Source of the DNA: Chloroflexota bacterium
Lineage (GTDB): Bacteria; Chloroflexota; UBA11872
Length of the DNA: 64,000 nt
Assembly (NCBI GenBank): GCA_022821905.1
Contig: JAJECS010000025.1
Location: 135,089-199,088 of the forward strand
Direction: 5' to 3'
Below, one piece after another: positions 25,632 through 37,741 of this stretch. The notes beneath the pieces are model-generated. The model was given only the letters and a program-made list of their open reading frames with translations, ran no database searches and was not told the origin of the DNA. The first letter of the stretch is position 1; each line of letters begins with the position of its first letter. The translations under genes were made by a program, and so were the position numbers.

Positions 25632-26012
25632 TCAAACCTGAAAGCCGAGCGCCGCGGCCGCTGCCTGCTGTCGCTCGTCGCGTGTGACGAACGCGATCTG
25701 GCCGGGCTCCGGCGCGGCATATAGGGCTATCGCGACGTGCCACAGGTCGGCGCCGTGCAATTGACCGGATTCGAGGACGGCTGACATCTCGGGAGCCAGC
25801 GGCCGGTCCGGCAGGACCCAGTCGATGCCGGCGACCAGATTGGTCGCGAAGTCGAGGCGCTCGCGCGCGAACACCGCGCGCAGCTCGGCCTCGAGCAGAT
25901 TAGAGGCGAGTAGGCGCGAGCACTCATCGAGACGCCCGGCGATCGCCGATCCGGACCGATCGTCGAATGCGACGGCGACCAGTGCCGACGTGTCGACGTA
26001 GGCGACGCTCAC
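25632..26012 (-). CDS. PIN-domain toxin (VapC-like)
   Basis: 126-residue PIN ribonuclease. Acidic residues are in place: Asp7 in YVDTSALV, Glu43 in LEAELRAV, and the Asp of GADLWHVAIAL, with FVTRDE at the C terminus. The start codon overlaps the stop of the Phd-like antitoxin by one base. Toxins of this type cleave tRNA or rRNA and are neutralised by the upstream antitoxin. Confidence 0.88.
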   Translation of the reverse strand: MSVAYVDTSALVAVAFDDRSGSAIAGRLDECSRLLASNLLEAELRAVFARERLDFATNLVAGIDWVLPDRPLAPEMSAVLESGQLHGADLWHVAIALYAAPEPGQIAFVTRDERQQAAAAALGFQV

Positions 26013-26284
26013 TAGTCGCGCTCGGTGAGGAATCGCTCCACGGCGCCGGCGCGACGCTCCACCACTTGGAGCGGTCGACGCGCCAGGCTCGATCGAACCA
26101 GGACGCCACGCCGCTCCAGGTCTTCCAGCCGTTCGTCGATCGTGGCCGGTTCCGGCTGGAGCGGCCGGATCTCGGCTACCGGCTCGTCGCGATAGGACAC
26201 CGTGACGGTCTTCCCCTCGCGCACCTGACGCATGACCTCGGCGAAGCGCGCCTTCGCTTCATAGGTTGAATAGGTGATGCCCAT
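26012..26284 (-). CDS. Phd/YefM-family antitoxin
   Basis: 90 residues beginning MGITYSTYEAKARFAEVMRQ, the N-terminal DNA-binding domain of the Phd/YefM fold, with VSYRDEPVAEIRPL next and a toxin-binding C-terminal tail. Coupled to the PIN toxin. There is no ribosome site, and a -10 box sits 7 nt upstream of the ATG, so the transcript is probably leaderless. Confidence 0.88.
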   Translation of the reverse strand: MGITYSTYEAKARFAEVMRQVREGKTVTVSYRDEPVAEIRPLQPEPATIDERLEDLERRGVLVRSSLARRPLQVVERRAGAVERFLTERD

Positions 26285-26291
26285 GCGCGGC

Positions 26292-26313
26292 AGTATAACC
26301 AGTCAGACTAGTC
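26292..26313 (-). promoter_or_regulatory. -10 box and palindrome upstream of Phd-PIN operon
   Basis: On the minus strand TATACT (26297-26292) lies 7 nt before the ATG. GACTAGTC (26306-26313), a perfect 8-bp palindrome with a partial repeat TGACTGG beside it, lies just upstream, a fitting site for antitoxin autoregulation. No good -35 at 17 bp was found. Confidence 0.4.
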
Positions 26314-26467
26314 AAATACCAATACGAGCCGCGAACTGATAGGAGGCATGCGGTCGTAATCTCGGCCACCGACCGAGGCGTCGGCCTGCACGATTAGCAC
26401 GGGACGCGGGAGTCCGGGTCCTATGCCTCGGCTAGGTCGGCCCGCCAAGCCTCGCCTCGCTCGACGA

Positions 26468-26791
26468 CTACTTGTCAGCGGCGAGACTGCGGCCTTGGGC
26501 CTGTCTGAGCTCGGACGCGAGCCCGCTCGGCTGCTCGCTGAGGACCCGATTTAGGCGCGACGTAATGTGTTCGTCCCAATGCTTGGTGAACTCCCCGCGC
26601 GTCAGACCGGCATCGGGGATCAGCGCCCGCAGCAAGCCTCGACCCAGCTCCCGGTGTCGGGGGACCGTGAGGCGGCGACCGGCCGGGCCGATGAGAATCA
26701 TGTGGCTGCCGCGCGTACGGTCCCGAGTAAAGCCGATCTGGGCCACTGCCTTGACAAACTCGTCGCCTGAGATGACGGGAAGACGCGCCAC
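26468..26791 (-). CDS. hicA: HicA-family mRNA interferase toxin
   Basis: 107 residues. The dsRBD-like HicA core is complete: SGDEFVKAVAQIGFTRDRT, the catalytic His in RGSHMIL, VPRHRELGRGLLRAL, and the terminal GLTRGEF. About 30 residues follow the usual HicA end, an unusual tail. The GTG start overlaps the stop of the hicB-like gene (TAGTG). The gene order antitoxin-toxin is a known variant of hicAB. Confidence 0.85.
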   Translation of the reverse strand: MARLPVISGDEFVKAVAQIGFTRDRTRGSHMILIGPAGRRLTVPRHRELGRGLLRALIPDAGLTRGEFTKHWDEHITSRLNRVLSEQPSGLASELRQAQGRSLAADK

Positions 26792-27366
26792 TACGCCGGG
26801 ACTTGCAAGACCTGAAACTCCGACGATGAAGGCAGGGGGTCCCCATGCTCACGCATGCTTGCCAGGTAGCCGCGAATGGCCTCTCGAATGTTGGTCAGCG
26901 CCTCGTCCCTCGTTCGCCCCTGGCTGTGGCATCCCGGGAGCGTGGGACAGCTGGCCACCACCCAGCCATCCTCGTCGCGATCGAACACCACCAGCAGATT
27001 CAGGATGTCCTGGCCGTCCGTCGGAGCGTCTAGCGGGGCTATGGTCGCTTCCGGCGACGGCTCGGCCGCATAAACCGCGGCATTCCGCCCCGGTGCCGGG
27101 ACGCCATAGATCACTTCATCCCGACGACGCTCTGATATCTCGAATCCCAACTTGCTGAGAATTCGGAAGGCGTCCTGTGAAGTGAATCCTGGAGAGGTCA
27201 GCCCGGTGACCAGCTGCAGCACTTGCCTGATCGGAAACTGACGCCCGTGAAGATCGATGAAGTATTTGTGGCGCCCGTCGGCAGCGTTGGGCTCCACGCC
27301 CCGCGTGACATCCTGGACGCTCTCCGGCGTGATCGCATAGAGCGCGCCACGAATCCGAAAATCCAT
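26791..27366 (-). CDS. hicB: HicB-family antitoxin with extra N-terminal domain
   Basis: 191 residues, far longer than usual HicB (about 70-130). The HicB core occupies about 123-179: LLVVFDRDEDGWVVASCPTL, PGCHSQGRTRDEALTNIREA. Residues 1-82 form a separate domain with YFIDLHGRQFPIRQVLQLVTG and FTSQDAFRILSKLGF, a pattern I associate with N-terminal domains of some modification-dependent restriction proteins (ScoMcrA-like); that likeness is from memory. A proline-rich linker joins them. The usual C-terminal HTH of HicB is absent, so the N-terminal domain may serve for DNA binding instead. Confidence 0.75.
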   Translation of the reverse strand: MDFRIRGALYAITPESVQDVTRGVEPNAADGRHKYFIDLHGRQFPIRQVLQLVTGLTSPGFTSQDAFRILSKLGFEISERRRDEVIYGVPAPGRNAAVYAAEPSPEATIAPLDAPTDGQDILNLLVVFDRDEDGWVVASCPTLPGCHSQGRTRDEALTNIREAIRGYLASMREHGDPLPSSSEFQVLQVPA

Positions 27367-27528
27367 TCAGTACCCTTGGGGTTCTTTCTTCTTTCTCTTA
27401 CTTCCCCGACCATAGCAGGCCCGGCCGGGGGTGTAGGGCCATCGCAATTCAGTCCGTCGCGCTAAACGTTGGCGCGAGGCAATCGCCCGGACTCTGGGGC
27501 ATGCGTCAAAAGAGGGCCTGCGACGTGT

Positions 27529-27555
27529 GGTAGAAATGCGCTCCATGTTTCTACC
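27529..27555 (+). promoter_or_regulatory. VapBC operator: inverted repeat with 8-bp perfect arms
   Basis: GGTAGAAA (27529-27536) and TTTCTACC (27548-27555) are exact reverse complements spaced by 11 bp, 12 bp before the vapB start codon. Position and symmetry fit binding of a VapB dimer pair for autorepression. It stands out as an AT-richer island in the GC-rich gap. Confidence 0.65.
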
Positions 27556-27567
27556 CCGAGGATGCCG

Positions 27568-27825
27568 ATGAGCCTCAACATCAAGAACGAGGAAACCTGC
27601 CGGCTGGCGCGCGAGTTGGCGCAGTTGACCGGCGAGACCATGACCGGGGCAGTCACCATTGCGCTAGAGGAGCGCTTGGAGCGGGAGCGGCGTCAGCGCA
27701 GCGTGGACGAGCGCCTGCGGGATATGCGGGCTATCTCCGAGCGCTGCGCCAAGCTGCTTGGCCCAGGCCCTTCCGCCGCCGACCACGGCGATCTGCTCTA
27801 TGACGAGCGAGGCCTGCCGAAGTGA
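27568..27825 (+). CDS. vapB: VapB-family antitoxin
   Basis: 85 residues starting MSLNIKNEETCRLARELAQL, the hallmark of Rv0623-type VapB antitoxins (ribbon-helix-helix N terminus, GETMTGAVTIALEERL), with a charged helix and the C-terminal DLLYDERGLPK that wraps the toxin. GAGG lies in front of this ATG; an ATG two codons earlier is possible. Coupled by a GTGA overlap to vapC. Confidence 0.9.
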   Translation: MSLNIKNEETCRLARELAQLTGETMTGAVTIALEERLERERRQRSVDERLRDMRAISERCAKLLGPGPSAADHGDLLYDERGLPK

Positions 27826-28208
27826 TCGTGGACTCCTCCGCGTTGCTGGCGGTGCTTTTTGGTGAGCCGGACGCGGACCAATTCGACGAGGCAATGGCCA
27901 AGTCCCTGCGCTGCCGCATGTCGGCCGTGAGTTTCTTAGAGGCCGCCATCGTCTTGGAGAGTCGTAGCGGCCCCGCGGCCGGGCATCAACTCGATGCGTT
28001 CTTGGAAGCGGCGGAGATTGAGTTGGCGCCGGTCACGCCCGACCAGGCGCGGGCCGCCCGACAGGCCTGGCGGCGGTTCGGCAAGGGCAACCACCCGGCG
28101 GGACTGAACTTCGGCGACTGCTTCAGCTATGCGCTGGCGGAATCCGCGCGCGAGCCGCTGCTATTCAAGGGCGAGGACTTTGCTCGAACCGACATCGAGG
28201 CGGCCTGA
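27822..28208 (+). CDS. vapC: VapC-family PIN ribonuclease toxin
   Basis: 128 residues. PIN acidic residues: Asp4 in MIVDSSALLAVLF, Glu40 in SFLEAAIVLE, Asp in GLNFGDCFSYALA and the late Asp of KGEDFARTD. The GTG start overlaps the vapB stop. This is the group whose members cleave the anticodon loop of specific tRNAs or the sarcin-ricin loop. Confidence 0.92.
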   Translation: MIVDSSALLAVLFGEPDADQFDEAMAKSLRCRMSAVSFLEAAIVLESRSGPAAGHQLDAFLEAAEIELAPVTPDQARAARQAWRRFGKGNHPAGLNFGDCFSYALAESAREPLLFKGEDFARTDIEAA

Positions 28209-28560: not shown

Positions 28561-29019
28561 ATGAGCACGCCAAGCCAAAGCAACGGAAAAACGGACCTCG
28601 TCATCCACCGGGTATTGATTGGGTCCCACCAGGTTTCCGAGTACCTCAACTCGGCCTGCGAGCGGGCGGGCGTGTCGCTGCCGCTGGCGCGTGCATTGCA
28701 GTTTCTGGCCGAGGCCGAAGGCCCGGTCACGCCCACCGAGCTCTCGCGCGAGCTCGGTCGCAGCCCGGCGGCCACCTCCGAGCTGGTGAAGCGGCTCGTG
28801 AACAGCGAGCAGATCACCGCGGACATCGATCCCAACGACCGCCGCTCGTTTCAGCTGGTGCTCACGAGCCGAGGGCACTCCAAGTGGCAGGGCGTGCGCG
28901 CGGAGCTTGAGGCCGCGGAGGCGTACATTACTCGCCGCTATGGCAAACGACAGTTGACCGAGCTTGCCGGTGCCATCGACGACCTGGCCGCCGCGCTCAA
29001 CGGCGCTGCCGCAGGCTAG
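28561..29019 (+). CDS. MarR-family transcriptional regulator
   Basis: 152-residue winged-helix regulator. Recognition helix region SRELGRSPAATSELVKRLVN and wing IDPNDRRSFQLVLTSRG are classic MarR. GGAGAG upstream of the ATG. Its 3' end overlaps the convergent PafA gene by 4 bases, so read-through in either direction would give antisense RNA. Target genes are not evident; autoregulation is likely. Confidence 0.88.
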   Translation: MSTPSQSNGKTDLVIHRVLIGSHQVSEYLNSACERAGVSLPLARALQFLAEAEGPVTPTELSRELGRSPAATSELVKRLVNSEQITADIDPNDRRSFQLVLTSRGHSKWQGVRAELEAAEAYITRRYGKRQLTELAGAIDDLAAALNGAAAG

Positions 29020-30509
29020 GGGCGCAGATACCCGCCGAGCTTGTCGGCGAACTCCTCGGCGACGGCGGTATAGCTCTCAAACGGATTGGGCAACTCGCAG
29101 AGCTTTCCGCGTACCCCGACGCCGGTCCAGTCGATCAGGTAGGGGATGACGTCCCAGCCGCCGTAGGCGTCGAGTTCATGCCAGTCCTCGATGTACTGGT
29201 AGACGAGGAAGAGCTGATCGTTCCAGTTCGTCAGCGCGCCGAGGTTCCGGTGGACGTCTTTCCAGTCGATCAGCGAGTCGGCCTGCGCTTCGACCAGCGC
29301 CCGCACGATGCGGCCCCGGGCGCGCGCCCGCGTGCCGGAGGGCACGGCCAGCGGATTCACATCCCCCTGCGTGCGGCGCGGGGCTACGCCCCGCCGCTGC
29401 AGCTCGGCAAAGATGCTCACCGTGGGGTCGATGTGGTGGTAGGCCAGATCCACTTTCACGAGCTCGGAGTCTGCCCAGCCATCCGGTGAGTCCTCGGCGA
29501 ATCGGCGCAACTGCTCGAGCTTGGTGATCCAGTCGACCTTGCCGACCAATACCGTCGGATCGCGCTCGAGGCCGTCCAGACACTCCGTCCACGCGTCCAG
29601 GGTCCAGTCGGTGTCACTGTCGCGGCCGCGGAAGGCGCGCTCGGCGGCATCCCAATACATGCGCTGGACGTCGAGAGCCGGCAGGGTTCGGCCGTTCGCC
29701 AGCTCGACCGACCAGGGGCCGGCCGGATTGCTTGAAATCTCCTTGAGCGTCTGCACCGGCGCCCGCAGCACCAGGTCCGGACTCCAGCCGCTCTCCAAGA
29801 GCTGCGCCACCAGCGCGGTGGAGCCGATCTTGAGTGCGGTGGCGAACTCGCTTCGGTTGGCGTCGCCCACGATCACGTGCAGCCGTCGCAGCCCGGCGTC
29901 CTCGGCCAGCGGCTCGTCGCGCAGATTGACGATCGGTCGACCGCCAAAGCGCACGCGCTGGCTCATATCGATGCTCACGAACGCCGCGCGCTGCGAGATG
30001 TGGAACGGCAGGCCGCCGTCGTCCCGGTCGCTGATCGTCATCCCGGCGCCGGCGTAGAGCTGCCGCGTGGTCAGGAAGGGCATCAGGCCGGCGGCCATGT
30101 CGAGACTGCGGGGACTGCGCCGCACGGCATAGTTCTCGTGGTAGCCGAAGGTGTTTCCCAGGTAGTCGGTGTTGTTCTTGATGAAGAACAGGCGACGATT
30201 CAGCTCCTGGCTCTCCACCGCGTCCAGCAGCACGGCGTCCGCCGCGTTCTCCTGCTCCACGATGTCGTCCAGCGTGCGGCACTCGGCCGTGGCGTATTCG
30301 ACGTGGCCGGAATCGAGGTAGAGCCGCGCGCCGTTGAACAGGAAGCCGCCATTCCCCGGCGCTTCGTCCCACTCCCGGGGCGCCGGGTCGATGATGCCGA
30401 AGCGGCGCTCGGCGAAGATCACGTTCTTGACCAGCGTTGCGGCCCGCGCCGGCGGAAACTCACCGGCGCTGGCGTACTCGATCTCCGTGCCGAACAGCGC
30501 GTCCTTCAT
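29016..30509 (-). CDS. pafA: PafA-like Pup ligase
   Basis: 497 residues of the carboxylate-amine ligase fold shared with glutamine synthetase. GTEIEYASA holds the Mg-binding glutamates, FLFNGARLYLDSG the conserved Asp base, YATAEC and FFIKNNTDYLGNTFGYHENY the nucleotide site, LRDEPLAEDAGLRRLHVIVG the Arg loop. The direct NGARLYLD continuation and absence of a long insertion before it resemble PafA rather than Dop. It would join the C-terminal Glu of the Pup-like protein (next gene upstream, 12 nt away) to substrate lysines. Which of the two paralogues is ligase is inferred from these motifs only. Confidence 0.85.
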   Translation of the reverse strand: MKDALFGTEIEYASAGEFPPARAATLVKNVIFAERRFGIIDPAPREWDEAPGNGGFLFNGARLYLDSGHVEYATAECRTLDDIVEQENAADAVLLDAVESQELNRRLFFIKNNTDYLGNTFGYHENYAVRRSPRSLDMAAGLMPFLTTRQLYAGAGMTISDRDDGGLPFHISQRAAFVSIDMSQRVRFGGRPIVNLRDEPLAEDAGLRRLHVIVGDANRSEFATALKIGSTALVAQLLESGWSPDLVLRAPVQTLKEISSNPAGPWSVELANGRTLPALDVQRMYWDAAERAFRGRDSDTDWTLDAWTECLDGLERDPTVLVGKVDWITKLEQLRRFAEDSPDGWADSELVKVDLAYHHIDPTVSIFAELQRRGVAPRRTQGDVNPLAVPSGTRARARGRIVRALVEAQADSLIDWKDVHRNLGALTNWNDQLFLVYQYIEDWHELDAYGGWDVIPYLIDWTGVGVRGKLCELPNPFESYTAVAEEFADKLGGYLRP

Positions 30510-30521
30510 CGGCCGCGGGGG

Positions 30522-30695
30522 CTACTCCCCGCCGGGCTGCGGCGTCGGATCCGGGATTTCACGAATGATCCGCCGGACGTGCTCACCCAGGTCGTCGTCC
30601 TCGGCCGGCGCGGTTTCTTCGTCCGGTGCCGTCTTGGCCGGTTCGGGCGGCGCCTCGACCTCGCCCGCCGGCACAGCCCGCCACGTGATGCTCAT
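30522..30695 (-). CDS. pup: Pup-like (UBact-like) protein modifier
   Basis: 57 codons, between the Dop-like and PafA-like genes. GGAGG stands 7 nt before the ATG at 30695. The protein starts MSITWRAV, is rich in Glu, Asp and Pro (EETAPAEDDDLGEHV), has one Lys at position 21, and ends IPDPTPQPGGE. A short, acidic, mostly disordered chain ending Gly-Gly-Glu is what Pup ligase needs; with Glu already encoded, no deamidation by Dop is required. Canonical actinobacterial Pup is about 64 residues ending GGQ or GGE and has a clear coiled-coil half, which is not evident here, so this is a diverged relative, perhaps of the group named UBact. Genuineness rests on context, ribosome site and terminus. 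Confidence 0.85.
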   Translation of the reverse strand: MSITWRAVPAGEVEAPPEPAKTAPDEETAPAEDDDLGEHVRRIIREIPDPTPQPGGE

Positions 30696-30698
30696 CGC

Positions 30699-32183
30699 TC
30701 ATCCTCCTCTGGCGCTAAGCGCGGCTACTACATCATCGATGGTTACAGATTGCTCAACCAGGGTTTGGAGTCGGTCGATGTCGGGTCCCGCCACCTCGTC
30801 CAACCGCAGAGTGACGTCCACGCCGTTGTGGCGCAGGTGGACGCGGTCCCACTCCATGGCGGTGATCGACGGTCCAAACCTGGCCAGCAACGTGCCCCGC
30901 ACGGCGGCCCTGGTGCCTGACGGCGGCGTCGTGCGCGCTCCCTCAACCTGCTCCGGCGTCACCAGCGTGCGCATGCGTCCCCGATCCGTGAGCCACTGGT
31001 GCACGCTGAGGTTCGGGTCCAGCAGGTGATAGGCGAAGTCGAGGCGTCGCGCCGCCTCCGGCGCCGGGCCGAGCTCCCGCAGCAGCGACAGCTTGGCCGC
31101 CCAGTCGACTCGGTCCGCCACGGATGCCGCATCGCTCCGCAAATCGGCCAGCACCTGCCCCCACTCGTCCAGCACCCAATCCGTCTCGGCGTCGCGTCCG
31201 CGGAAGCGTTCGCAGGCACTCAGCCACCACCGTTGGATGTCGAGCGGCGAAACATTGAGACCGTCGTCGAGTTCGATGCTCTCGCTCAGCGTGAGGTCGT
31301 GGGAGACCTGCTGGACCGCAGCCACGGGATCGCGCAGCCGGATAGGCGCCCGCCATCCGCCCTCGACCGCATCGAGCACCAGCGCGGTTGTCGCCGCCTT
31401 CATCCCCGTCGCCCACTCGCTGCGGTTGGCGTCGCCGGCGATCACGTGCAGCCGCCGGTAGCGGGTCCGATCGGCGTGCGGCTCGTCGCGCGTGTTGAAG
31501 ATGGGCCGGCGCGCCGTCGTGTTGATTCCCACCACCGTTTCGAAGAAGTCGGCGCGCTGGGATAGTTGCAACGCGCCGGAATCGCCGCCCTCGATGCCCA
31601 CGCGACCCGCGCCGGCGAAAACCTGGCGCGTCGCCAGGAAGGGCACCAGCGCGTCAACGAGATCGTCGAGCGGCACCTCGCGCAGCGTCAGGAAGTTCTC
31701 GTGGCAGCCGTAGCTGCGCCCGTGATAGTCCGTGTTGTTCTTGACCAGCCGCACCCGGCCGCCGTCCAGGCGGGCGTTATGCGCCTGCTCGGCCTCGTGC
31801 ATCAGCGCCTCGCCGGCGCGGTCCTGCGCCACCAAGTCGAGCACCGTGCGGCAGGCGTCGGTGCAGTACTCGGGGTGATTGTGGTCGTTGTAGAGCCGCG
31901 CGCCGTTCAGCAGCACCGTGTCGGCCAGCAGCTCCTCCCGCGTCATGCGGGAGCTCTGTTCGGTCGAGCCCAGATGGTCGTTGGCGTCGCGCGCCAGCGC
32001 GTCGACCCGCGTGCCGCGCAGGTCGCGCCGCGGGTCCTCGTCGGTGTAGTCCCAACCGCGAAACGCGACCGGCAGCGGCGCCGCGTGAATCAACATCGCC
32101 GACTCGAAGGCGAAGTCGGGCGGTCCCGCAAACCCTTCGCAATTGAGGCCGTATTCCGTCTCGATTCCGACCGGGCGATTCAT
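30699..32183 (-). CDS. dop: Dop-like Pup deamidase/depupylase
   Basis: 494-residue paralogue of the PafA-like protein. GIETEYGLNCEG at the N terminus, then a long insertion (about 40-85, DYTDEDPRRDLRG onward) before LLNGARLYNDHNHPEYCTD, which corresponds to the Dop loop; LVKNNTDYHGRSYGCHENF and FNTRDEPHADRTRYRRLHVI are core motifs and strongly Dop-like. It would remove Pup from substrates (deamidation should be unneeded with the GGE end). Its TGA lies 3 nt before the Pup-like start; the GGAGG used by that gene is in its last codons. No proteasome alpha/beta or Mpa/ARC gene is present in the window. Confidence 0.85.
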   Translation of the reverse strand: MNRPVGIETEYGLNCEGFAGPPDFAFESAMLIHAAPLPVAFRGWDYTDEDPRRDLRGTRVDALARDANDHLGSTEQSSRMTREELLADTVLLNGARLYNDHNHPEYCTDACRTVLDLVAQDRAGEALMHEAEQAHNARLDGGRVRLVKNNTDYHGRSYGCHENFLTLREVPLDDLVDALVPFLATRQVFAGAGRVGIEGGDSGALQLSQRADFFETVVGINTTARRPIFNTRDEPHADRTRYRRLHVIAGDANRSEWATGMKAATTALVLDAVEGGWRAPIRLRDPVAAVQQVSHDLTLSESIELDDGLNVSPLDIQRWWLSACERFRGRDAETDWVLDEWGQVLADLRSDAASVADRVDWAAKLSLLRELGPAPEAARRLDFAYHLLDPNLSVHQWLTDRGRMRTLVTPEQVEGARTTPPSGTRAAVRGTLLARFGPSITAMEWDRVHLRHNGVDVTLRLDEVAGPDIDRLQTLVEQSVTIDDVVAALSARGG

Positions 32184-35406: not shown

Positions 35407-36273
35407 TCAAGCCCCAACTCTCACGCTGTAATCAAGCGTCGAGAATTCTTCGGACTCGAAAGCCGGCGAATTGGGCGACCACGTCAGGCGTCGGGTAGTC
35501 CGTGCCAGTGTCGGCGCGCTTACGACATATCGCTCATCATAGCGTCGGTACATGGTTGTGAAGAAACTCTCGAAATTGGTGGGTTTGCCACTAGCCGGAA
35601 AGCTTGTCATCAGCTGCCCGATTCGGTCGGGCTGCATGTCTATGAGCGCCATCGACACTGCCTCATAGCGGCTCACGTCATCGCGAATCCCGAGCCTGCC
35701 TGTCATTTCGCTCAACGCGGCGTGAAAGCGAACGATTGCCTCGACTGGTTCACCGCAGGCGCTGATTGCAACATCGTTAGTCTTTACGCCCTTAGATTCT
35801 TGATTTGCACGAATGACGAACAAATACCCAAATACAAGTGTTGGATAGCTGATGTGAATGTTGGTGCATTCGCCGATGGTCTCTTCGAGCCTATTGGTTA
35901 GATTTCGGACTGCACCGGTCATGCCCTTGCAGGAAACTGCTAGAACGGGTCCGATTCCTTCTTTTGTGGCAACGATGTCGACACTCTTGGTCTTCAAACC
36001 CCCGAGAACAGTCGCTTCGTTGTCGGTCGCTGTCTTTGGTTCGTAGACTAGTAGGCTTTCGGTGCCACTGCGCCTGACCGTGAACGGAGGTCGCGGCACA
36101 AGATCATCGGGATGGAATCCACCCTCGATGACAAGTCGGGAAGTTACATATTTGTGAAGTGGCCGAATGTGCTTCTGAGTCTGTGTGCGTCCTTCAAACT
36201 CTGCGAAATGCCTGAATGCATATAGCCTGTTTGACCAGCTTGCTTCTAGGTGCGGCCTATTGCGTCGAGGCAT
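35407..36273 (-). CDS. Putative restriction endonuclease partner of the adjacent methyltransferase
   Basis: 288 residues, no family confidently recognised. A nuclease-like core is suggested by Asp99 in KSVDIVAT and Ser-Cys-Lys116 in VLAVSCKGM, a D-...-(E/S)xK variant where Ser replaces the usual Glu. Clearly lower GC than the flanks. Its ATG lies inside the last codons of the methyltransferase gene (17-base overlap), so the pair is co-translated. Function as the R subunit is inferred from this coupling. Confidence 0.6.
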   Translation of the reverse strand: MPRRNRPHLEASWSNRLYAFRHFAEFEGRTQTQKHIRPLHKYVTSRLVIEGGFHPDDLVPRPPFTVRRSGTESLLVYEPKTATDNEATVLGGLKTKSVDIVATKEGIGPVLAVSCKGMTGAVRNLTNRLEETIGECTNIHISYPTLVFGYLFVIRANQESKGVKTNDVAISACGEPVEAIVRFHAALSEMTGRLGIRDDVSRYEAVSMALIDMQPDRIGQLMTSFPASGKPTNFESFFTTMYRRYDERYVVSAPTLARTTRRLTWSPNSPAFESEEFSTLDYSVRVGA

Positions 36274-37741
36274 AATGTCTCCAATTTCGCATGGTTGATA
36301 TCGCGCTTTCGATCTCTGAATCAGGTAGGCAACTGACGACGTGTGGCGATGGGAGCACGAGTTGGGCCGCTTCGCGTAGTTCGAGTTTCAGTAGTCCACC
36401 GCCCAGTGCATGGCCCTCTAGCTCACAGCTAAGCTGAACGAAGCGCGATTGCCACACGCCCAAAAGGCTGCTGGCGCGATGCCGGTCGCGGACACGCACG
36501 ACGTGCAATGCGTTTGTACAGGTCGCCGACGCCAAGTTCTTTACCAAGCTTGGCGAACGCCCTGCCATGTACGTCAGAAAGAAGTCAGGCACACGTACGT
36601 CCGGCACGGAGTACCAAGGATTGCGCATTCGGCACTTGTACGCTTCGCGGGCCTCCTGACCTGCATACGTGCTGAGGTACTTCGACACGCTGGTTGGTAG
36701 GTGCCCATTCTTGGGAAGGCGGAGCAGCATCATCGGCTCGTCGGAGCGCCGCCATGAGTCGACTGTCTGCGTCGTCAGTTCTTTACTTGGCAGCACGCGG
36801 CTGTTGCGCACGGTCGGGTGAAGGAGGCCACTTGGAATATCCATATCAGTCGCCTCGGACGGTCTGAGATGAAAAAAGTCGTTTGCGCCACTTACGTAGC
36901 CGAGGCCGATGGAGGCGACAGCACCAAGATGCACCGAATCCTGGTGCTTTGCGACGGCGCGATAGAGTGATCGGGCGCTATCGCTCAGGAGGTAGGGACG
37001 CAGGCGTCGCTTCCACACGTCCCGCCATTCACAAACCGGAATCCCAATTGAATTGAGCGGTGGAACGTCGGAGTTGCCAAGCTGCTCCACGGGTGTGAAG
37101 CGGATCTCATCTGTTGAGCCGCCGAACCCTTCAGCGAATAACAACCAGCAATCCTCGGAGAGACGCGGGAAGAGCTTTTCACGAATCGCGACGATCCTTA
37201 AGGTGTCGAAGTGTTCGACCAAGTAATCGAGGAGCGGCGCGGAGTAAGGCGCGTGGCCGATGGCCGCAGGCACGATGAACGCCATCCGCCCGCCTGTGCG
37301 CAAGAGGCCGGTGGTTGCGACCAAAAACGGCGCCCATGAAGCTGTGAGTCCTGAAAACTTGACGCCGAGATTGGCGCAGAATTCCAGGGCCCGCTTCCGC
37401 ACCTGGCCCTTGAAGCTCTGATAGCGAATGAATGGCGGATTGCCGGCCGCACAGTCGAAACTCTCGTGGGTTTGTTCGGCCCAGGTAAAGAAGTCGCCCT
37501 GGTGAATCGTCGTCCACGGCGCACGTCGCTTAGCCTTGGCAGCGGCTATGGCGTCCTGTTCCACACCCCAACTATTGCGATGGGCGGCGACGAAGCGACC
37601 ATCGCCGCATGACGGGTCGATGAGGCGGTCGGTGCTGTTTCGCACGGCCCAGCGAACCAGTTGCGAAGCGATCCGTTCCGGCGTGTAATACGCGCCGCGG
37701 GCCTTTTGCGAGGGGTAGGTCGCTGGCGAAAGTTGGGTCAC
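36257..37741 (-). CDS. DNA adenine-N6 methyltransferase, gamma class (TaqI/Eco57I-like)
   Basis: 494 residues. N-terminal GAYYTPERIASQLV is typical of type II gamma-class enzymes; motif I DPSCGDGRF at 42-50 comes first and motif IV NPPFIRYQ at 101-108 after it. A target-recognition region makes up the C-terminal half. The GTG at 37741 is used as start. Codon usage is less GC-biased than that of neighbouring genes, pointing to transfer together with the downstream nuclease-like gene. Second restriction-modification system in the window. Confidence 0.88.
   Translation of the reverse strand: MTQLSPATYPSQKARGAYYTPERIASQLVRWAVRNSTDRLIDPSCGDGRFVAAHRNSWGVEQDAIAAAKAKRRAPWTTIHQGDFFTWAEQTHESFDCAAGNPPFIRYQSFKGQVRKRALEFCANLGVKFSGLTASWAPFLVATTGLLRTGGRMAFIVPAAIGHAPYSAPLLDYLVEHFDTLRIVAIREKLFPRLSEDCWLLFAEGFGGSTDEIRFTPVEQLGNSDVPPLNSIGIPVCEWRDVWKRRLRPYLLSDSARSLYRAVAKHQDSVHLGAVASIGLGYVSGANDFFHLRPSEATDMDIPSGLLHPTVRNSRVLPSKELTTQTVDSWRRSDEPMMLLRLPKNGHLPTSVSKYLSTYAGQEAREAYKCRMRNPWYSVPDVRVPDFFLTYMAGRSPSLVKNLASATCTNALHVVRVRDRHRASSLLGVWQSRFVQLSCELEGHALGGGLLKLELREAAQLVLPSPHVVSCLPDSEIESAISTMRNWRHYASTQ

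What the first reader, a model, noticed from the sequence alone, without database searches (positions are those of the whole stretch)
29016..32183. Pup-ligase module with an unannotated 57-codon Pup-like modifier
Between two full-length Dop/PafA paralogues lies a 57-codon gene with a textbook ribosome site (GGAGG, 7 nt before ATG), an acidic Pro/Glu-rich body, a single Lys and a Gly-Gly-Glu end. The C-terminal Gly-Gly-Glu is what a Pup ligase uses; a clear coiled-coil half like that of actinobacterial Pup is not evident. Pup-type systems were first described in Actinobacteria, with Pup-like UBact proteins reported in other phyla; the rest of this window does not look actinobacterial. The gene is below ordinary ORF length cut-offs and so easily missed.
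Basis: partly seen in the sequence, partly recalled or inferred. Interest (0 to 1): 0.88.

Follow-up and report, generated by a model that had tools for sequence, protein, structure and literature searches.

The report
Proteasome-less Pup-like tagging system in Chloroflexota
In one class of Chloroflexota bacteria a tiny gene with an almost unchanging tail sits between the two enzymes of the Pup pathway (the bacterial counterpart of ubiquitin tagging) and likely encodes a new family of protein tag, in genomes where searches found no complete proteasome to read such a tag.

Summary
Confirmed and strengthened. The 57-codon gene (30522-30695, minus strand) starts 3 nt after a Dop-type gene and ends 12 nt before a PafA-type gene. 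Sought through the enzymes alone, the same small gene lies between them in 21 of 21 readable loci of the order, this one included (a 22nd has an assembly gap there). A motif scan, partly over the same genomes, gave 30 loci, all Dop-modifier-PafA. In the class, 38 of 41 genomes carry exactly one copy; two of the other three show no such enzymes, the third has the gap. Of 160 listed homologues, 158 end Gly-Gly-Glu or Gly-Gly-Gln, nearly all after PDPTPQP. The family matches neither Pup nor UBact models (0 of 41 genomes over either cut-off). None of the 41 genomes shows a complete 20S proteasome or passes the ARC/Mpa cut-off. Best reading: a Pup-type, reversible lysine tag with a new modifier family and an unknown, probably non-proteasomal reader. 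Conjugation is inferred from enzyme homology, conserved catalytic positions and the E/Q end; AlphaFold2 models did not place the modifier confidently. New variant of a known kind.

The parts
30522..30695 (-). 57-codon modifier gene (Pup-like small protein), stop TAG included
   Evidence: present in 21 of 21 readable order loci and 38 of 41 class genomes; no Pfam or NCBIfam match listed at E<=10 (HMMER's filters drop most matches above about 0.1)
30525..30572 (-). conserved tail RIIREIPDPTPQPGGE: end of the predicted helix, Pro-rich linker, Gly-Gly-Glu end
   Evidence: 19 invariant columns over 21 sequences; pN/pS 0.174 over the last 20 codons of 31 sequences; 8 of these residues, PDPTPQPG, were fixed by the scan motif
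30703..30707 (-). GGAGG ribosome site, inside the last codons of the Dop gene, 7 nt before the modifier ATG
   Evidence: read directly
30699..32183 (-). Dop-type depupylase/deamidase, 494 aa, with Dop-loop (GWDYTDEDPRRDLRG from residue 43)
   Evidence: PF03136 471.2 bits; TIGR03688 403 bits, under its 492.3 cut-off; PDB Dop 5lrt/4b0r E 5e-99; Dop-loop residues invariant in 19 sequences
29016..30509 (-). PafA-type Pup ligase, 497 aa, no Dop-loop
   Evidence: PF03136 352.9 bits; TIGR03686 283.9 bits, under its 551.3 cut-off; PDB PafA 4b0t E 4e-62; D66 and R191 align with PafA D64 and R201 and are the same in 25 of 25 aligned PafA rows

Best explanation
The 57-codon gene lies between a Dop-type and a PafA-type gene and encodes a small acidic protein that is likely the tag of this pair: PafA would join its terminal glutamate to lysines of target proteins, Dop would deamidate and remove it, and no complete 20S proteasome or ARC was found to read it. 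Shown: the three-gene module, its co-occurrence, the fixed tail with E or Q at the end, the conserved catalytic positions, the lack of a Pup or UBact match, and the lack of an ARC match over the cut-off and of a complete 20S proteasome in the searched genomes. Inferred from the Pup pathway: ATP-dependent phosphorylation of the terminal Glu side chain by PafA, attack by a lysine, deamidation of GGQ forms by Dop, and depupylation. Inferred with less certainty: the short helix (DLGEHVRRIIREI) docks in the groove that takes Pup helix 1, the Pro-rich PDPTPQP stretch replaces Pup helix 2 and threads the tail into the active site, and the tag works without a proteasome, either as a reversible mark or as a handle for another AAA+ machine.
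For: Gene order Dop-modifier-PafA in 30 of 30 loci that were found by the modifier motif alone (in L058 and L072 one enzyme is cut by the contig end). Enzymes and modifier co-occur in a 301-genome phylum sample: 35 genomes with PF03136, all of one class, 34 of them with a strong modifier match, the 35th (G008) with an N gap at that spot; by subtraction 264 sampled genomes lie outside the class and none has PF03136. One copy per genome in 38 of 41 class genomes. Only E or Q at the last position in the 30 rows of the PafA tree, which needs 3 E/Q changes (2 forced by well-supported branches), as expected if Dop can deamidate Q; the 120 listed Pups also are encoded with GGE (61) or GGQ (59). PafA D66 and R191 align with C. 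glutamicum D64 and R201 and are unchanged in 25 of 25 rows; PMC8599861 (passages) gives R201 as a contact of the Pup C-terminus and D64N as the mutant of 4BJR. The enzyme models match Dop and PafA structures best. pN/pS 0.174 (partly fixed by the scan motif).
Against: No sequence homology to Pup or UBact could be shown (hhalign 1% and 2.9%). AlphaFold2 did not dock the modifier: in the PafA chain its pLDDT is about 29-42; in the Dop chain the helix block reaches 83 but the last residues 27, and the alignments to Dop and PafA structures do not cover the modifier. Both enzymes score under the curated equivalog cut-offs of TIGR03686 and TIGR03688, so the activities are by homology only. Five of the 120 homologues listed have no Lys, so tag-on-tag chains cannot be general. 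In one lineage a metabolic gene (mandelate-racemase type) is a constant neighbour, which a carrier role could also explain.
Confidence: 0.8

Rival explanations
1. It is a true Pup or UBact ortholog that has merely drifted beyond recognition, and it still feeds a proteasome or proteasome-like complex that the searches missed.
For: Same gene order as dop-pup-prcBA-pafA (locus numbers in the Figure 2 legend of PMC8223512) minus prcBA; the helix DDLGEHVRRIIREI falls in the region of Pup helix 1 in the best, non-significant hhalign alignment. One genome, G295, has a 96-aa stretch matching bacterial 20S alpha (TIGR03691, 130.7 bits) at the very end of a contig; two others, G011 and G013, have a weak proteasome-like domain (38 and 41 bits).
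Against: 0 of 41 genomes pass the Pup or UBact cut-off (below the cut-offs 2 and 7 genomes had weak matches at E 0.007 to 0.09, none at the modifier), 0 of 41 pass ARC, 38 of 41 have no PF00227 match at E<=0.001, G000 included. G295 is rated 6% contaminated, has no beta subunit match, its Dop/PafA lie on another contig and none was seen beside the fragment.
Confidence: 0.12
2. The small protein is not a protein tag but a carrier: the GS-fold ligase loads its terminal glutamate with a small amine, as LysW does in lysine and arginine biosynthesis (LysW comparison recalled).
For: Small acidic protein with a terminal Glu beside a glutamate-amine ligase of the GS fold; YbdK and glutamate-cysteine ligases are the next structural neighbours. 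In 9 of the 30 loci, exactly one 9-row clade of the PafA tree, an enolase-superfamily (mandelate-racemase type) gene of 68-100% identity lies just before Dop on the opposite strand.
Confidence: 0.07
3. The ORF is a non-coding or regulatory leader (for example for translational coupling of PafA) and its peptide has no role.
For: Very short gap to PafA (12 nt) and in-frame arrangement in this genus.
Against: Protein-level conservation with synonymous change; the gap to PafA grows to 245-549 nt in five loci (L050-L052, L054, L056) while the peptide end stays fixed.
Confidence: 0.01

Closest known systems
Pup-Dop-PafA system of Actinobacteria (Pup PF05639/TIGR03687)
   Same: Dop and PafA homologues with the same catalytic positions; small modifier between them in the same relative order; GGE or GGQ end
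   Different: Modifier not related by profile; one short predicted helix and a Pro-rich tail where Pup has two helices; ARC and complete 20S not found; another phylum
Corynebacterium glutamicum-type pupylation without 20S
   Same: Pup-type module without proteasome core subunits
   Different: C. glutamicum keeps ARC, which disassembles pupylated ferritin (PMC12288473 and PMC8223512, passages); no ARC passes the cut-off here
UBact (NF033388)
   Same: Small modifier with a terminal Glu or Gln beside Dop/PafA homologues (recalled from its description)
   Different: 0 of 41 genomes pass the UBact cut-off; the typed UBact-like control ends in RSGE, not PGGE; described together with proteasome genes (recalled)
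Pup ligases of Plesiocystis and Rhodopirellula (Iyer et al. 2008, PMC2588565, passages)
   Same: Pup-type module with no proteasome genes beside it
   Different: Those ligases carry an insert of four membrane segments and sit by a membrane protein gene; the window's PafA shows no strongly hydrophobic stretch (highest 19-residue Kyte-Doolittle mean 1.03; 1.03-1.71 over 25 rows); no membrane-helix predictor was run

Membership tests
Pup (PF05639 / TIGR03687) | sequence match to the family profile | tested here: not met
   no family listed at E<=10 for the window protein; PF05639 over the cut-off in 0 of 41 genomes (two weak matches elsewhere, E 0.007), control C. glutamicum rings; hhalign 1%; typed Streptomyces Pup control 73.4 bits
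Pup (PF05639 / TIGR03687) | 50-90 residues with a G[EQ] C-terminus (Iyer et al. 2008) | tested here: met
   57 aa, GGE; 158 of 160 listed homologues end GG[EQ]; their lengths run 43-146, median 71.5, so some fall outside 50-90
Pup (PF05639 / TIGR03687) | gene next to a PafA homologue | tested here: met
Pup (PF05639 / TIGR03687) | two-helix C-terminal core on the ligase or depupylase | tested here: inconclusive
   Models show one helix (H35-45 and H532-542) at low to moderate confidence and no confident docking
Pup (PF05639 / TIGR03687) | isopeptide to lysine through the terminal glutamate | not testable with these tools
   needs enzyme assay or mass spectrometry
UBact (NF033388) | sequence match to the family profile | tested here: not met
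   no family listed at E<=10 for the window protein; 0 of 41 genomes over the 35-bit cut-off (seven with weak matches elsewhere, E 0.03-0.09); typed UBact-like control 77 bits
Dop | Pup_ligase domain | tested here: met
   PF03136 471.2 bits, cut-off 25
Dop | Dop-loop before strand 2 (PMC8599861, passages) | tested here: met
   GWDYTDEDPRRDLRG at residue 43; R42-Y46, E49, P51, D54-G57 invariant in 19 sequences
Dop | NCBIfam equivalog TIGR03688 over its cut-off | tested here: not met
   403 bits against 492.3
PafA | Pup_ligase domain without a Dop-loop | tested here: met
   352.9 bits; GWDY in 0 of 25 PafA rows, 19 of 19 Dop rows
PafA | Asp64 and Arg201 equivalents | tested here: met
   D66 and R191 by alignment to 4b0t, same in 25 of 25 rows
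PafA | NCBIfam equivalog TIGR03686 over its cut-off | tested here: not met
   283.9 bits against 551.3
Bacterial Pup-proteasome system | 20S core subunits | tested here: not met
   none in G000 (genome 93% complete); 38 of 41 class genomes without a match at E<=0.001; three weak or partial ones
Bacterial Pup-proteasome system | ARC/Mpa ATPase | tested here: not met
   TIGR03689 over its cut-off in 0 of 41 genomes, in 1 of 14 controls; all 41 have sub-cut-off AAA matches

The most novel reading that the evidence does not exclude
A third family of Pup-type modifiers, not related by sequence to Pup or UBact, runs a proteasome-free and ARC-free protein-tagging system across a class of Chloroflexota; the tag is read by an unknown receptor, so Pup-type conjugation would not need the proteasome at all and may have been coupled to it secondarily in Actinobacteria.
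Probability: 0.45. Interest if true: 0.85.

Novelty: new variant of a known kind. Interest (0 to 1): 0.74.

Why it matters
Pup-type tagging is known as a feeder of the bacterial proteasome, with C. glutamicum (no 20S, ARC kept) as the best-studied exception. Here is a single-copy module in 38 of 41 genomes of a class (modifier count), with both enzymes and a tag but no complete 20S and no recognised ARC, which makes the question 'what is Pup-type tagging for without a proteasome?' directly testable. It also gives annotators a family that sources name only 'hypothetical' or 'uncharacterised' protein. The fixed tail predicts a tryptic remnant, EIPDPTPQPGGE (+1217.556 Da on lysine), that can be searched for in existing metaproteomes.

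Tried and rejected
A first PafA alignment misplaced N-termini and was replaced. A first locus scan ignored the strand and was replaced. In one search locus L121 was mis-parsed (clipped contig); its modifier is (G288). Candidate reader: a 414-aa PAN/CDC48-like ATPase in G000 (L003) was dropped because its best matches are far under the cut-offs and, in the capped list, frames of about that size with such a match were seen only in G000 and G014 besides shorter or longer ones elsewhere. Flanking genes: over 12 loci, no family besides the enzymes recurs in more than 5; seven flanking proteins were scanned by Pfam. While checking this report I found that I had understated one: the mandelate-racemase-type gene lies before Dop in 9 of 30 loci, one whole clade. 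That raised the carrier rival from 0.05 to 0.07 and lowered the best explanation from 0.82 to 0.80. The two weak phylum hits outside the class (E about 0.009, inside 539- and 294-aa frames) were dropped as chance. Two clusters bear names from other phyla, 'Actinobacteria bacterium' (P0042) and 'Gammaproteobacteria bacterium' (P0045); I take them for mislabelled MAGs, untested. A tree of Dop/PafA against other phyla was not made for lack of fetched sequences. P0280 (146 aa with a Pup_ligase domain tag) looks like a stretch overlapping the Dop end joined to the modifier; no weight given.

Literature: searches (open-licence PMC only) listed no paper whose title or abstract start treats pupylation in Chloroflexota; the two hits with both words (PMC10693628, PMC10991733) mention that phylum in other contexts (passages). 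PMC7947786 names Actinobacteria, Nitrospirae and, sporadically, NC10, Armatimonadetes, Verrucomicrobia, Nitrospinae, Firmicutes, Proteobacteria and Planctomycetes; the word Chloroflexi does not occur in it, nor in PMC2588565. Only the first 300,000 characters of PMC7203096 are held. The UBact paper was not seen; what is said of UBact beyond its model is recalled.
Full report
What is there. On the minus strand of the window lie, in this order, a 494-aa Dop-type gene (30699-32183), a 57-codon gene (30522-30695) and a 497-aa PafA-type gene (29016-30509). The small gene starts 3 nt after the Dop stop; its GGAGG site lies within the last Dop codons, 7 nt before the ATG; it ends 12 nt before the PafA start. 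Both large proteins match Pfam Pup_ligase (471.2 and 352.9 bits); by NCBIfam the first is nearer Dop (403 bits) and the second nearer PafA (283.9), each under its curated equivalog cut-off. The first carries the Dop-loop, the second does not. D66 and R191 of the PafA-type protein align with D64 and R201 of C. glutamicum PafA and are unchanged in 25 of 25 aligned rows; PMC8599861 gives R201 as a contact of the Pup C-terminus and D64N as the mutant of structure 4BJR (passages). Models of both enzymes match Dop and PafA structures best.

The small gene is real. In the order, 22 of 24 genomes have the enzyme pair, the window's own included. In 21 of these 22 the same small ORF lies between, ending PTPQPGGE or PTPQPGGQ; in the 22nd, G008, the assembly has a run of N across the spot. 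Eleven further class loci found by Dop were examined: ten show it; the eleventh, L121, was mis-parsed by my script and its modifier appears. A separate scan of GTDB contigs for the peptide PDPTPQPG, which partly covers the same genomes, matched 175 stretches, of which 30 encode a relative, and all 30 have Dop before and PafA after (one enzyme cut by the contig end in L058 and in L072). At codon level the tail is kept while synonymous sites vary: pN/pS 0.174 over the last 20 codons of 31 sequences; eight of those residues were fixed by the scan motif, so the order loci are the unbiased evidence.

The family. Two profile searches of 5.8 billion proteins reported 159 and 161 homologues with E up to 10, of which 120 each are listed; the lists hold 160 distinct proteins. 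Of these, 123 end GGE and 35 GGQ; the two others, P0090 and P0281, lose the tail. No listed one carries a Pfam domain except P0280, whose Pup_ligase tag belongs to a Dop stretch; where a source names one it is hypothetical or uncharacterised protein. The N-terminal part is variable, Pro/Thr/Glu-rich and likely disordered; then come a short charged helix (predicted), a Pro-rich stretch and Gly-Gly-Glu/Gln. On a PafA tree of 30 rows the last residue is E in 18 and Q in 12, with 3 changes needed, 2 forced by well-supported branches. In Pup the same choice exists, and Dop turns GGQ into GGE (PMC8599861 and PMC7947786, passages).

Distribution. In an even sample of 301 Chloroflexota genomes, 35 have PF03136 and all belong to one class; 34 of the 35 have a strong modifier match (the 35th is G008 with its gap). 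By subtraction 264 sampled genomes lie outside the class and none has PF03136. Two further modifier matches outside the class, at E about 0.009 inside long frames, are taken as chance. In the class as held, 38 of 41 genomes have exactly one modifier; G006 (76% complete) and G019 lack it and the order search found no enzymes in them either. The 30 records named are MAGs; some isolate codes suggest sponge projects, which is my guess. One is UBA2235, which I recall as the name of a GTDB class.

Not Pup, not UBact. The NCBIfam library holds both models: a Streptomyces Pup and a UBact-like control, both typed from recall, hit them at 73.4 and 77 bits. The window protein and eight family members show no match to either (HMMER's filters drop most matches above E 0.1). 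Searched over 41 class genomes, Pup and UBact pass the cut-off in none; weak matches under the cut-offs were reported in 2 and 7 genomes, at other places than the modifier. Profile comparison gives 1% for Pup and 2.9% for the UBact-like sequence; a profile of the family scores 120 Pups at E 0.04 or worse in a 120-sequence set. So homology to either cannot be shown; common descent with loss of signal cannot be excluded.

No known reader. G000 has no PF00227 match. In the class, 38 of 41 genomes have none at E<=0.001; G013 and G011 have one weak match each (41 and 38 bits, nearest archaeal beta/HslV models far under their cut-offs), and G295 has 96 aa of a 20S alpha subunit at the very end of a contig. 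G295 is rated 6% contaminated and has no beta subunit match; contamination is possible and a real subunit is not excluded. ARC (TIGR03689) is over its cut-off in 0 of 41 genomes and in 1 of 14 controls. C. glutamicum, by contrast, lacks 20S but keeps ARC (PMC12288473, PMC8223512, passages), and Plesiocystis and Rhodopirellula have Pup ligases with membrane inserts and no proteasome genes nearby (PMC2588565, passages). Outside the three genes the neighbourhood varies between lineages, with one constant feature inside one clade: a mandelate-racemase-type gene before Dop, on the opposite strand, in 9 of 30 loci (in L048 and L057 cut by the contig end). Its meaning is open; it gives some room to the carrier rival.

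Mechanism. Shown here: the module, its conservation, the fixed end, the conserved enzyme positions, the missing reader. From established Pup biochemistry: PafA phosphorylates the side chain of the terminal Glu and a lysine attacks; Dop deamidates GGQ and hydrolyses the isopeptide. Inferred: that these enzymes do this with this protein. Docking of the modifier was tried with two single-chain models and is unresolved.

Verdict. The finding is confirmed and grows: a class-wide Pup-type system with its own modifier family and no complete proteasome found. It works like pupylation with high likelihood; it is not a member of the Pup or UBact sequence families as now defined.

Noticed in passing
window 29016-32183: Dop, modifier and PafA share one reading frame here (Dop TGA, one codon, modifier ATG; modifier TAG, four codons, PafA ATG). 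Modifier and PafA are in frame also in many relatives; Dop and modifier in frame in L043-L045 of the same genus.
   Followed up: partly
L055 6971-8158 and the same place in L047, L048, L049, L053, L057, L060, L061, L062: A mandelate-racemase-type (enolase superfamily) gene lies before Dop on the opposite strand in one whole clade of 9 loci (68-100% identity); L043-L045 of the window's genus have only a distant relative (28%) about 2 kb away.
   Followed up: partly
L127 (G295:C256, last 300 bases); L105: A 96-aa stretch of a bacterial 20S proteasome alpha subunit at the end of a contig in one class genome (TIGR03691, 130.7 bits); contamination or a real lone case.
   Followed up: partly
L103 and L104 (G013, G011): A 247-aa open frame with a weak proteasome-family domain, nearest the archaeal beta and HslV models but far under their cut-offs.
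   Followed up: partly
window 25632-28208: A run of small overlapping ORFs that by their translations look like three toxin-antitoxin pairs (PIN-type and HicA/HicB-like); not scanned against families.
   Followed up: no
window 35407-37741: Two adjacent minus-strand ORFs that look like a DNA methyltransferase and its restriction partner by their translations; not scanned.
   Followed up: no
L003 916-2160 (G000 contig C17): A 414-aa single-ring AAA ATPase nearest proteasome-activating nucleotidase/CDC48 models but far under their cut-offs, in a genome without a proteasome match; a possible tag reader, no link shown.
   Followed up: partly
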